Assembly: GCA_943704415.1 (NCBI GenBank)
Contig: CALSCO010001738.1
Coordinates: forward strand, 1 to 23,892
DNA from: Parvularia atlantis
Lineage: Eukaryota; Opisthokonta; Rotosphaerida
Reading direction: 5' to 3'
Length of the DNA: 23,892 bases
The translations under genes were made by a program, and so were the position numbers. Below, one piece after another: positions 1,842 through 23,892 of this stretch (the first letter of the stretch is position 1; each line of letters starts with the position of its first letter). The notes beneath the pieces are model-generated. The model was not told where the DNA came from, made no database searches, and saw nothing but the letters and a program-made list of their open reading frames with translations.

Positions 1842-3991
1842 TCAGGCGGCATCGCGCGGCAGGCACTTGTACGGGTTGAGGATCCCGTGTGGGTCCCACA
1901 TGTCCTTGAGCCGGCGCATGAGCTCGATCGTCATGCGGTCTGTGCGCGCCGCGCGTCTCAAGTCAGCCGAGCATGGCACAACGCGGCACACACACCCTTG
2001 CTGTAGTGCAGGTACGGCGCCTTCATCAGCCCGAGGCCGTGCTCGGCCGAGATCGAGCCGCGGTCGGCCGCTGCGCAGCCCCTCCGTCGTAAGCGGCGCA
2101 GCCCGGTACACGGCAAGCGCACCGGTAAACTCGTACACGAACGGCTCGATCAGCTTCTCAATCTCGGCGTTGTACGTCTTGGTGAACACGTTCAGGTGCA
2201 GGTTGCCTGGCTCGCCGCGTGAGACGCGCGGCAGCACGCACGAGCAGCAGGGGCGCACCATCACCGAGGTGCCCAAAGCCGCACGCGCCCGCGGCGTCGA
2301 CCGCTCGCACGCGCTCGCGCACGGCCTCGACAATCGCGTACAGCCGCGGCACCGGCAACGACAGGTCGTACTTGTACGTCATGCCGTTGCGCATGAGCGC
2401 CTCAGGGATCGTCTCGCGTACGCGCCACAGATTCTGCGCCTGCAGATGCCACATGCGTCAGTGCCCGGTGCTGAGCGGCTCAGGTGCGCGCCTGGCTGTC
2501 GCTCGCGGCGATGATGCCGTCCTGCACGAGCTCGTCCGACACACACGTCTCCAGGAAACGGCTCAGTTTCTGCCGGGCGCGATCAGCGTGTGTGCGCGCG
2601 CGCAAAGGCCGGCAGAGGCGCACCTCGCTGTCGTGCTCCTCGTTCGACCCGGACGTCTCCACGAGCACATAGAATGGGTACGCCGTATCAAACGGGCGCT
2701 CGAGGTGCATCTGCTGCTCGACGAGCTGCATTGACGCGGAGTCGAAAAACTCGCATGCTGACGCACTTGTCAGCCCGCGCAACGTGCACGCGTGCAGCCG
2801 GCGCACCGGAGAGGATCTCGCCCAGCACATGCTTGGCCGCGCGATACGTCTCCTGCACGCGTGCATAGTCGGCGCAGCCAAAGACCGCGACTTTGACCGA
2901 GCGCGGCCGCAGCGGCGTGAGCACGGCGACGCGCGTAATGACGCCCAGCGTGCCCTCGGAGCCGATCATGAGCTGCTTGAGGTCGTAGCCTGTGGCGCAG
3001 GCGTCAGCGCACGATGCACACGCACAGCCGCGAGCACGGCGCACCGGTGTTGTCCTTGCGCAGCGTCGTCAGGTGGTCGAGCACCGTCCCGTCCGACAGC
3101 ACAACCTCGAGTCCCAGCACCGTCCCGTGCAGCGAGCCGTACCGCAGGAAGCGCAGCCCGCCGGCGTTCGTTGCGACGTTGCCGCCGATCTGGCAGCTGC
3201 CCTTGGCGCCTGCGCGCACACGCCGCGATCAGCGCATGCACCCGACCCGACTAAGGCGCACCGAGGTCGAGCGGCATCATGTACCCGTGCCGCGCGACGT
3301 GCTCGTCCAGCGTCTGCAACACACACCCGGCCTGGCACACGACCACGCCCGACACGGCATCGAAGCTCTCGATGGCGCTCATGCGCACCGTGCTCAGCAC
3401 TACCTCGTCAAACAGCGGCACGCCGCCGCCTGCGATGCGATTCAATGCGCGCCGATTAGGGCACACGTGGCGACGAGCACGCTGCACCGGCGCGCACCCA
3501 CGAGGCCCGTGTTGCCCCCCTGCGGCACCACGGCGAGCCTGCACCCCGCGCACGCGCTCAGCACGGCACACACACGCTGCGCGCACGCGCATCGCACCGC
3601 CGCTCGTTGCAGTACGCGAGCACGCGCGACACCTCGGCCGTCGTTCGCGGCCGCAGCGCCACCGGGCCCATCCCGCGGTACTTGCGCAGCCAGTCGGTGT
3701 TGTACCTGCGGCCCCGTCAGCATCGCAAAGCCCTGCACAGGCAGCCGTGCCGCTCGAGCTCGTCCGGCGCCGTCTCAACGGCCGCGGGGCCGAGCATGCG
3801 CCGGAACGCGTCCACATCGGCCGGCGCGACCTGGCCCCCTCCTGTCAGCGCGCAGCCCCACCGATGCGTGCAGCCCAGCCACACGCCTGCGCAAAGCGCC
3901 GGTCGCGCACGTGGCCGGCGTAGCGCTCGACCGTCAGCGGCACGCGCGCGGCCGCGGTCGACAGGCGCCGGCGGAGCAGGTTCGCCACCAT
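1842..3991 (-). CDS. D2HGDH: D-2-hydroxyglutarate dehydrogenase, FAD-linked, mitochondrial
   Basis: Oxidises D-2-hydroxyglutarate to 2-oxoglutarate with FAD, passing electrons towards the respiratory chain via ETF in known systems. The start at 3991 gives an Arg-rich presequence lacking acidic residues ([16 protein letters not shown]), consistent with mitochondrial import. Blocks in order: [11 protein letters not shown] (about 75), [12 protein letters not shown] (about 105, FAD-binding), [20 protein letters not shown] (about 170), [18 protein letters not shown] (about 230), GHLGDGNLHLNV (about 415) and SAEHGLG (about 452), ending LNPYKCLP. Thirteen exons on the minus strand: 3991-3887, 3830-3739, 3705-3598, 3538-3498, 3429-3262, 3209-3045, 2989-2807, 2757-2624, 2569-2492, 2439-2259, 2206-2123, 2070-1996 and 1939-1842; 503 residues. 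Two introns are GC-AG. The second could be a 33-nt GT-AG intron (3706-3738) or a 45-nt GC-AG intron (3706-3750). It shares a divergent promoter with the acyltransferase at 4155. The yeast Dld2/Dld3 type is the same family. Confidence 0.95.
2440..2491 (-). other. GC-AG intron in D2HGDH (CAG|GCGCGC)
   Basis: The intron joins SDSQ to [10 protein letters not shown] in phase 0. There is no GT near the required exon end, so only a GC donor keeps both conserved blocks. An ACTGAC branch-like site precedes the acceptor TCTGCAG. The length is 52 nt. Confidence 0.9.
3831..3886 (-). other. GC-AG intron in D2HGDH (CAG|GCGTGT)
   Basis: The intron joins RRFAQ to VAPADVDAF in phase 0. The nearby GT donors shift the frame or create a stop. 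An in-frame GT donor further upstream would delete the family's conserved RxxxFA segment. A CGCTGAC site lies about 16 nt before the acceptor. The length is 56 nt. Confidence 0.85.
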
Positions 3992-4154
3992 GCGCTGTCA
4001 CAGAGCTCCTGCTGTATTCCGCCTGGCTGCAACCGCCGCGCGCCCAGCATGGCCGTCACATCCTCTCTTCCTAGGCCTATCGCCGATCGCGCGCCCACCT
4101 CTTGCCCCATCGCGCGCGCCCGCCGGTGACACGCGCGCGCGCGCGGCCGCAGGC
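3992..4154. promoter_or_regulatory. Divergent promoter region between D2HGDH and the carnitine acyltransferase
   Basis: These 163 bp separate two divergent start codons, so the region probably drives both genes. It contains a C/T-rich patch around 4060-4075 and an alternating CG run just before the acyltransferase start. The end of the region (GTGACACGCG... then CCGCAG, 4127-4152) looks like a branch site and 3' splice site, so a 5'-UTR or alternative-first-exon intron is possible. The stretch is also open in frame with the acyltransferase from an ATG at 3990. I see no TATA box. Confidence 0.5.
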
Positions 4155-22708: not shown

Positions 22709-22767
22709 CCGTGTGGGCTGTCACACTGATAGTCTGTCGCCACACGCTTTTGTTTCACGCTGCCGCC

Positions 22768-23892
22768 TCACGGTGGTGGGTGCCGGTGCCGCGCAGAGGC
22801 CTTGAACTCATCCAGCGTCGCGTTCAGCCGCCGCCCAAACACGTCAATCTCGTCGCACGTTACGCCCAGCGCCGCCGCGGCCGTCAGGTACGGCGCCGGG
22901 TAGTCGTCAACGTGGGCCATGAAGCCGCGAAAGGCGATGTCGGCCACGGTGCGGGTCTCGCCCGGGTGCACCACGCGCGTGCCCGAGACGCCACGCGAGA
23001 AGAGCATCGAGCCCAGGAACGAGATGTCGCTCGGCGGCCGCTCCGGCGCCGCGTCCAGCAGCCCCGCGAGCGACAGCCCTGTGCCAACACATCTGTCACA
23101 GGCAGACACAAGCAGCAGCCGAGCGCGCGCGTGCACGCACCGAGCGAGATGTCGTTGCCGGGCGTCTCGAGCACGCGCAGACCGTGCTTGGCCGCGACCG
23201 TGTCCAGCACGCTGCGCAGCTGCTTGAACCGCTCCTGAGGCGCACCCGCACGTCAGCTCCCGCGACGCAGCAGGCGGCTGCGCACGCGCGCCTTGCGGTC
23301 CGTCAGCAGCGCACGGTAGCCGGCCGAGCCGAGCGAGAGCAGCGTGATGAACACGTCGACCACGGGCGCGTTGGACGCGCGGCCTGGCATGATCGCACGC
23401 GCGTGTCAGCAACCGCCGGAAGCACACTGGCACAACGCGCAAACGCGCGCGAGGCCCACCCGGGTACAGCTTCGACACCGCGTCCACCAGCGCCACGTTA
23501 GGCCCGGCCACCACCGCGCCCCCGATGGGCACGAGGAAGTTCTTATCGGTGCTCTGCACGAAGACTGCGCGTACACCCAGTCAGAGCCGTGCTCGCGCGC
23601 GGGCGCGCAGGGTGCAGCCACACCGTCCAAGCGCCCCACGCGGCACGCCTCAGCAATCAGGTGCATGCACTTGGACGACTGCACGCCGTACGCGTTGTTG
23701 ACGATGTGCGGCACGTCGTGCTCCCGGCACAGCTGCGCCACGTCGACGAGGCTGTGTGCGGCGCGCGTGTGTGCTGAGTGCGGCGCCCAGGGCTCCAAGC
23801 GGGCAGCCACCACCGCACCGGTCGGGCACGCGCGGTGCAAAGCACGACGTCGTGGTGCACACGCACGCGATCGTCTCCGGGTCGTGCTCGGC
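22768..23892 (-). CDS. SEPSECS: O-phosphoseryl-tRNA(Sec) selenium transferase (SepSecS), 5'-truncated by window edge
   Basis: PLP enzyme that converts phosphoseryl-tRNA(Sec) to selenocysteinyl-tRNA(Sec) using selenophosphate, the last step of eukaryotic selenocysteine synthesis. The C-terminal half is present and matches human SepSecS closely: [51 protein letters not shown] (Lys is the PLP Schiff-base residue), [35 protein letters not shown] and [20 protein letters not shown]. The visible exons on the minus strand are 23892-23819, 23751-23624, 23564-23460, 23383-23292, 23234-23141 and 23078-22768; 267 residues. The N-terminal half lies beyond the right edge. The intron at 23235-23291 has tandem GC and GT donors. 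The gene is convergent with BROX, 59 bp apart. Confidence 0.95.
23235..23291 (-). other. GC-AG intron in SepSecS, tandem with a GTGCGC donor
   Basis: AAG|GCGCGC joins LLTDRK to [10 protein letters not shown] with no gap relative to human SepSecS as I remember it. A canonical GTGCGC donor 6 nt downstream (23285) is also in frame and would insert Ala-Arg. The length is 57 or 51 nt. Confidence 0.7.

What the first reader, a model, noticed from the sequence alone, without database searches (positions are those of the whole stretch)
2440..23291. GC-AG introns are unusually frequent, with a strict (A/C)AG|GC context
Seen directly: of about 109 introns placed by joining conserved protein blocks, at least 11 begin with GC. 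They are 2440-2491, 3831-3886, 5379-5441, 8747-8804, 9206-9262, 11766-11823, 12520-12569, 16626-16681, 17862-17916, 18143-18209 and 23235-23291. In eight of these I found no close in-phase GT donor that keeps the conserved blocks; a GT alternative exists at 9206, 17862 and 23235. All 11 follow an exon ending in AAG or CAG, and the donor is nearly always GCRCG. GT introns here often follow other bases. Known: GC-AG introns are about 1% in most eukaryotes and need stronger exon pairing to U1. About 10% suggests a lineage-specific relaxation of donor recognition.
Basis: partly seen in the sequence, partly recalled or inferred. Interest (0 to 1): 0.75.

Follow-up and report, generated by a model that had tools for sequence, protein, structure and literature searches.

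The report
Frequent GC-AG introns, GC-rich eukaryote
About one intron in ten in this GC-rich eukaryotic stretch appears to start with GC instead of GT, almost only where the neighbouring bases fit the splicing machinery best; this is a known habit of some GC-rich genomes, seen here in an unidentified organism.

Summary
That is 12 of 106 (11.3%, 95% CI 6.0-18.9%).
The context claim is nearly right. AAG/CAG precedes 11 of 12 GC donors but 10 of 94 GT donors; A at +3 occurs in 7 of 12 against 3 of 94. The added site (GCG|GCACGG) breaks the 'strict' rule.
The interpretation needs changing. Recognition is not simply relaxed: GC is kept almost only where pairing to U1 can be strong. In AAG/CAG sites that also carry RCG at +3 to +5, C:T at +2 is 10:4, near the intron interior ratio (2.0); outside AAG/CAG sites it is 1:84. 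GC-AG shares of 7.7-39.6% in GC-rich algae (PMC3033335) and compensating context (PMC2490688) are published. This is a new member of a known kind. No RNA, U1 gene or rest of the genome was available.

The parts
2440..2491 (-). GC-AG intron, D2HGDH gene, CAG|GCGCGC, branch CTGAC, 52 nt
   Evidence: template score GC 287, best GT 247, maximum over all donors 288; ungapped to 6lpn
3706..3750 (-).
   Evidence: template score GC 254, best GT 241 (donor 3738, 33-nt intron); 13 units better in the joint test too
3831..3886 (-). probable GC-AG intron, D2HGDH gene, CAG|GCGTGT, 56 nt; rival GT introns 3931-3831 (101 nt) and 3910-3831 (80 nt)
   Evidence: whole-protein template score 1382 against 1380 and 1373 for the rivals; 144 against GT 142 and GA 149 in the local test. 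The 3931 donor is ACG|GTCGAG, unlike the window's GTGCG consensus, and both rivals would be longer than every modelled intron (maximum 79 nt)
5379..5441 (+). GC-AG intron, carnitine acyltransferase gene, CAG|GCACGC, 63 nt
   Evidence: template score GC 111, best GT 96; ungapped to 1xmc
8747..8804 (-). GC-AG intron, ACAP-like gene (PH domain), AAG|GCACGG, 58 nt
   Evidence: template score GC 133, best GT 123, maximum over all donors 134
9206..9262 (-). GC-AG intron, ACAP-like gene (BAR domain), AAG|GCACGC, 57 nt
   Evidence: template score GC 123, best GT 112; ungapped to 4ckg
11766..11823 (-). GC-AG intron, DNA polymerase lambda-like gene, CAG|GCACGC, 58 nt
   Evidence: template score GC 292, best GT 276
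12520..12569 (-). GC-AG intron, DNA polymerase lambda-like gene, AAG|GCGCGA, 50 nt
   Evidence: template score GC 160, best GT 149
16626..16681 (-). GC-AG intron, COG3 gene, CAG|GCACGG, 56 nt
   Evidence: Pfam COG3_C 261.0 bits against 234.0, 232.4 and 225.0 for three GT forms
17862..17916 (-). GC-AG intron, COG3 gene, AAG|GCACGC, 55 nt
   Evidence: Pfam COG3_N 156.1 bits against 148.6 and 143.8 for two of the three GT forms listed
18143..18209 (-). GC-AG intron, COG3 gene, AAG|GCGCGC, 67 nt
   Evidence: Pfam COG3_N 156.1 bits against 144.2 for one of the three GT forms listed
23235..23291 (-). GC-AG intron, SepSecS gene, AAG|GCGCGC, 57 nt
   Evidence: template score GC 282, best GT 270; ungapped to 3bc8
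8250..8314 (-). undecided GC-AG candidate, ACAP-like gene, AAG|GCGCGC, 65 nt
   Evidence: chosen by the gene model; template score 100 against GT 102 and another donor 108: no support
12806..12854 (-). undecided GC-AG candidate, polymerase gene linker, GAG|GCCAGT, 49 nt
   Evidence: chosen by the gene model; GC and GT tie at 84

Best explanation
These are ordinary U2-type introns of a 68% GC eukaryote whose donor T at +2 has become C at sites where the rest of the donor can pair strongly with U1 snRNA. Shown in sequence: GC share about 11% in this window; length, branch site and acceptor like those of the GT introns; AAG/CAG exon ends; more A at +3; G at +5 in all 12. Inferred: GC-biased mutation or gene conversion pushes T to C, and the change is tolerated where pairing is strong (C:T there is close to intron interior composition) and purged where it is weak. 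A normal U1 would suffice.
For: Homology-only test over 16 dinucleotides: of 60 introns examined 29 were decided between GT and GC, 8 for GC and 21 for GT. Pfam test of three COG3 introns. One extra dinucleotide at a time in a GT-trained model: GC gains 78.2 log units, next CG 44.0. AAG/CAG 11/12 vs 10/94, p = 1.4e-8; +3 A 7/12 vs 3/94, p = 3.4e-6. In the homology-decided subset, whose decision rule does not use context, the same holds: 7/8 vs 1/21, p = 3.9e-5; 5/8 vs 0/21, p = 0.00047. AAG/CAG plus RCG: 10 GC and 4 GT; non-AAG/CAG: 1 GC and 84 GT; intron interior C/T 2.01. Computed pairing with the consensus U1 5' end: GC sites -3.57 kcal/mol, GT sites -4.14, GT sites if mutated to C -1.88; by pairing potential the GC share is 0/2 below -9, 4/5 from -9 to -7, 7/31 from -7 to -5 and 1/68 weaker. 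GC introns: median length 56.5 vs 55 nt, CTNA branch 12/12 vs 84/94, CAG acceptor 12/12 vs 89/94. Published parallels: PMC3033335 (passages), PMC2490688 (part 1 of 2).
Against: No RNA evidence for any junction. The two strongest potential donors (pairing below -9 kcal/mol) are both GT. Composition alone does not fix the share: Micromonas RCC299 (64.1% GC) has 2.7% but M. pusilla (65.9%) 22.2% (PMC3033335). Twelve introns are few, and the AAG/CAG+RCG class was defined after seeing the data. In 22 of 60 template-gene introns a form other than the model scored more than 1 unit higher (15 of the 22 with neither GT nor GC as winner), so single-template homology is noisy. The full-set context statistics lean on a gene model trained on such contexts; weak-context GC introns may be under-counted (one, 3750, was kept by homology). 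If the five undecided or reassigned GC calls are counted, AAG/CAG is 12 of 17 rather than 11 of 12. U1 was assumed to have the consensus 5' end.
Confidence: 0.72

Rival explanations
1. Donor recognition itself has changed in this lineage (U1 snRNA base or modification, U1C, U6 or other donor-proofreading parts), so that C at +2 is accepted generally.
For: High share; about 80% of GT donors carry C at +4 (75/94), where the consensus U1 has a mismatch, so the donor consensus is unusual. PMC3033335 suggests RNA modifications or U1 snRNP proteins for Aureococcus and M. pusilla.
Against: GC is almost absent from weak contexts (1 of 85) and frequent in strong ones (11 of 21), as expected of an unchanged U1. 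The 5' end of the putative U1 RNAs is the normal consensus in Aureococcus and two Micromonas (PMC3033335).
Confidence: 0.15
2. Many of the GC introns are modelling errors; the true donors are nearby GT sites or the segments are retained.
For: In-frame GT alternatives exist for several, e.g. 3931, 17910, 23285, 5403. My own gene model made at least three wrong or unneeded GC calls (12701, 14188, 18031; and the open frame). Not every GT alternative was scored for COG3.
Against: Eleven sites lose 10 or more score units, or 7.5 or more bits, with the best tested GT alternative. The context signature reappears in the subset decided by homology alone.
Confidence: 0.08
3. The GC introns come from a recent family of intron-generating mobile elements (introners) that carry a GC donor.
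For: Introner gains in Micromonas and Aureococcus, which also have many GC-AG introns, are recalled, not looked up here. The top intron pair (859 and 19935, both GT) scores 19.5, above all 10 first-order simulations (14.5-18.0).
Against: With second-order simulations the null maxima are 15.0-21.0 in 30 runs, which covers 19.5; the best GC-GC pair scores only 11.0 and the best GC-GT pair 12.5.
Confidence: 0.03

Closest known systems
GC-AG introns of GC-rich algae: Aureococcus anophagefferens (39.6%), Micromonas pusilla (22.2%), Chlorella sp. (7.7%) (PMC3033335, passages seen)
   Same: high genomic GC (69.5% and 65.9% for the first two; about 68% here, window only), GC-AG share far above 1%
   Different: organism here unidentified; share about 11%; dependence on donor context measured here, not seen in the passages of that paper that I read
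Mammalian U2-type GC-AG introns (PMC2490688, part 1 of 2 read)
   Same: the rest of the donor sits closer to the U1-complementary consensus, which compensates the +2 change
   Different: under 1% of mammalian donors; here about 11%, and GC outnumbers GT 10:4 in the strongest context class

Membership tests
U2-type GC-AG intron | GC donor and AG acceptor, with no equally good GT donor | tested here: met
   11 of 12 by homology margin over the tested GT forms; the twelfth undecided
U2-type GC-AG intron | stronger match of the remaining donor to the U1 consensus | tested here: met
U2-type GC-AG intron | branch site and acceptor as in GT-AG introns | tested here: met
   CTNA 12/12 against 84/94 (best match in a window, so favoured in both), CAG 12/12 against 89/94
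U2-type GC-AG intron | splicing seen in RNA | not testable with these tools
   no RNA data for the organism
GC-AG-rich genome (Aureococcus/M. pusilla kind) | high genomic G+C | tested here: inconclusive
   1-kb bins 0.63-0.72 in the window; genome not held
GC-AG-rich genome (Aureococcus/M. pusilla kind) | genome-wide GC-AG share well above 1-2% | tested here: inconclusive
   10.4-15.7% of about 106 introns in one 24-kb window; no genome held
U12-type (minor) introns | RTATCC donor | tested here: not met
   no modelled donor is GTATCC (0 of 108) and AT donors were not needed (2 used, gain 0.5); branch sites not tested against the U12 motif
Introners | family of similar intron sequences | tested here: not met
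   one window only

The most novel reading that the evidence does not exclude
Position +2 of the donor is not universally constrained: in this GC-rich lineage it is effectively neutral (C:T set by base composition) once AAG/CAG and RCG supply enough U1 pairing, and constrained otherwise. If general, this gating would explain the abundant GC-AG introns of GC-rich genomes, which PMC3033335 calls an enigma, without any change in the splicing machinery.
Probability: 0.35. Interest if true: 0.55.

Novelty: new member of a known kind. Interest (0 to 1): 0.34.

Why it matters
GC-AG introns at this level would mislead gene finders and RNA aligners that expect GT, so GC-rich eukaryotes risk mis-annotation. 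The sharp split between strong-context GC donors and weak-context GT donors turns an old puzzle, why some GC-rich genomes accumulate GC-AG introns, into a simple quantitative test that can be run on annotated GC-rich genomes.

Tried and rejected
Relatives in other collections: the first 642 residues of COG3 in genome contigs (35 pattern matches, 0 relatives), D2HGDH in viral contigs (2 pattern matches, 0 relatives), the acyltransferase in plasmids (none). No comparative intron positions could be had, and the organism stays unidentified. The COG3 stretch, GH5 and BRO1 proteins have no solved-structure match.

First versions of two tests were flawed and replaced: one search scored a sliding segment, so donors upstream gained by drawing in more downstream sequence (replaced); the joint D2HGDH test had the same fault (replaced). 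Neither is used; the context table is. One search stopped with an error and was rerun. The upper-bound context test used 10 of 91 GT sites where 9 of 91 is right; one search gives p = 4.1e-7 for 12/17 vs 9/91.

GC calls of my gene model set aside: 12701 (GT donor 12713 scores 134, no GC form above 123), 14188 (frame open, no intron needed), 18031 (GT 18034 better, 156.1 vs 149.2 bits). Put to GT alternatives for want of a decision: 850 to 859, 18319 to 18322 (156.1 vs 156.2 bits), 19542 to 19491; these count only in the upper bound of 17 of 108. When all 16 donors were allowed at once in the gene model, 5 of 103 introns took neither GT nor GC; two of these five replaced GC sites that homology supports (8804, 11823).

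In one search I scored part of the GT forms listed: one of three for 18209, two of three for 17916, one of three for 18319, and for 16681 two of three plus one form from the GT-only model.

Introner origin and U12 type were tested and not supported.
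Full report
What the window is. The window is 23,892 bases of a GC-rich (about 68%; 1-kb bins 0.63-0.72) eukaryotic genome. No whole genome is held for it, Rfam finds nothing at gathering threshold, and ARAGORN finds no tRNA gene. I wrote a small gene-model program (codon usage, donor, branch, acceptor, length) and trained it on the window itself, with gene spans, strands and starting weights set by hand after reading the finding. 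It gives 11 genes: a GH5 glycosidase (+), D-2-hydroxyglutarate dehydrogenase (-), a carnitine acyltransferase (+), an ACAP-like BAR-PH-ArfGAP-ankyrin protein (-), a 3'-5' exonuclease without introns (+), a DNA polymerase lambda-like protein with a BRCT match below cutoff (-), an LRR protein (+), COG3 (-), a weakly kinase-like protein (-), a BRO1-domain protein (+) and the end of SepSecS (-). Ten proteins were scanned with Pfam (9 of 10 had matches) and the LRR protein; the kinase-like protein has no Pfam match above cutoff.

Check of the observation. The 11 listed introns read as stated. The program, allowed GC donors at a prior of 0.1 but not given the listed positions, found all 11 among 104 introns, 18 of them GC; with an intron-composition term it gave 109 introns, 20 GC. 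It over-calls GC, so its GC calls were tested by homology where a template or profile covered them.

Homology test. Five genes have solved relatives: 6lpn, 9g9l, 4ckg and 3jue, 1xmc, 3bc8. For each of their 60 modelled introns I tried donors within 45 nt and acceptors within 36 nt, with any of the 16 donor dinucleotides and any AG acceptor that kept the frame open, and scored the spliced segment against the template with fixed ends. A donor is called decided when the model lies within 1 unit of the maximum and the better of GT and GC wins by 10 or more: 29 of 60, namely 21 GT and 8 GC. Of the other 31, 9 have the model within 1 unit of the maximum but a GT-GC margin under 10, and in 22 some other form beats the model by more than 1 unit (winner neither GT nor GC in 15, GC alone in 3, GT in 3, GC tied with another in 1). 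Two of the 22 are GC models: 3886 and 8314.

COG3 has no solved relative, so splice forms were scored with Pfam. GC beats the tested GT forms at 18209 (156.1 vs 144.2 bits), 17916 (156.1 vs 148.6 and 143.8) and 16681 (261.0 vs 234.0, 232.4 and 225.0). At 18319 GC and GT tie (156.1 and 156.2). At 18031 GC loses to the GT donor 18034 (149.2 vs 156.1).

In a joint search of the first two D2HGDH introns the GC form scores 1382, a 101-nt GT intron from 3931 scores 1380 and an 80-nt one from 3910 scores 1373. The 3931 donor is ACG|GTCGAG, unlike the GTGCG of this window, and both rivals would exceed the longest modelled intron (79 nt). GC is likelier, but it is not proven. In the same search, GC at 3750 is 13 units better than GT with either partner.

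Count. Curated: 108 introns, 94 GT, 12 GC, 2 undecided. Share 12/106 = 11.3% (95% interval 6.0-18.9%); without 3886, 11/106 = 10.4%; counting every undecided or reassigned GC call, 17/108 = 15.7%. The probability of 11 or more at the 1.3% pooled over 61 species in PMC3033335 is 1.6e-7. Introns of one window are not an independent sample of a genome.

Specificity. In a model trained on GT alone, allowing one further dinucleotide at a time raised the total score most for GC (78.2), then CG (44.0) and AC (33.2). GC is also the commonest dinucleotide (0.161), close to CG (0.153), so the CG row is the fair control. With all 16 allowed at once: 89 GT, 9 GC, 5 others.

Context. Exon ends AAG or CAG: 11/12 GC, 10/94 GT (p = 1.4e-8). 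A at +3: 7/12 GC, 3/94 GT (p = 3.4e-6). G at +5: 12/12 and 89/94. Length, branch site and acceptor do not differ clearly. In the subset decided by homology, whose rule does not use context, the same holds: 7/8 vs 1/21 (p = 3.9e-5) and 5/8 vs 0/21 (p = 0.00047). In the upper-bound set AAG/CAG is 12/17 vs 9/91 (p = 4.1e-7). The 8-mer (A/C)AGGC(A/G)CG is not sufficient by itself: 18 occurrences on gene sense strands, 11 at modelled donors (one of them the undecided 8314), 5 in exons, 2 elsewhere; 11 on antisense strands.

Mechanism. Two donor classes emerge: one mostly G|GTGCGY, which leans on the intron side, and (A/C)AG|GCRCG, which uses both sides. With AAG/CAG and RCG both present, GC outnumbers GT 10:4; with AAG/CAG but not RCG it is 1:6; without AAG/CAG, 1:84. 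The C:T ratio of intron interiors is 2.01. In the strongest class C:T at +2 (2.5) is therefore about what base composition alone would give, while without AAG/CAG it is about 170-fold below the intron-interior ratio. Computed pairing with the consensus U1 5' end agrees: GC sites keep -3.57 kcal/mol on average, GT sites have -4.14, and GT sites would fall to -1.88 if they became GC. Against this, the two strongest potential sites are both GT. The numbers are small, the classes were drawn after seeing the data and U1 itself was not seen, so neutrality in strong contexts is inferred.

What is known. PMC3033335 (passages seen) reports GC-AG at 39.6% in Aureococcus (69.5% GC), 22.2% in M. pusilla (65.9%), 7.7% in Chlorella, 2.7% in Micromonas RCC299 (64.1%) and 1.3% over all introns examined, calls the origin an enigma, finds the 5' end of the putative U1 normal in Aureococcus and both Micromonas, and suggests RNA modification or U1 snRNP proteins. 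[quoted passage not shown] PMC7072748 (passages) reports that genome GC correlates with splice-site GC in fungi, plants and animals. PMC7789003, PMC7242645, PMC6310983, PMC3488318 and PMC10639083 were seen as passages only. In seven paper searches of an open-licence library I saw no paper that tabulates +2 C:T by donor context in a GC-rich protist; most listed papers were not opened.

Verdict. The phenomenon is a further case of a published one. The context gating is the part worth following up.

Noticed in passing
10238-11218 (+): The exonuclease gene (Pfam DNA_pol_A_exo1, 30 bits) has no intron, while the window averages about 6.5 introns per kb of coding sequence (about 6.8 expected here; Poisson chance of none about 0.001). 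Retrocopy or gene transfer is possible; no plasmid match.
   Followed up: partly
18799-20860 (-): Gene for a protein with a hydrophobic N-terminus and only a weak kinase-like match (Pfam 18.2 bits, below cutoff). From memory it resembles PXK/Slob-type pseudokinases.
   Followed up: partly
22694-22708 (+): The BRO1-domain protein ends in CCIS, a CAAX-like prenylation signal as recalled for BROX.
   Followed up: no
14051-14188 (-): Short repeated units (GRPADVTGLGGRPADAAGHDGRPAEAPGHD) near the N-terminus of the polymerase lambda-like protein; open in frame, spliced out by my gene model without need.
   Followed up: no
the 94 GT introns of the window: GT donors carry C at +4 in 75 of 94 and AG at -2,-1 in only 16 of 94, so the donor signal lies more on the intron side than in the usual consensus.
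   Followed up: partly
22768-23892 (-): SepSecS (Pfam 250 bits) suggests that the organism makes selenocysteine, which argues against most fungi (general knowledge).
   Followed up: no
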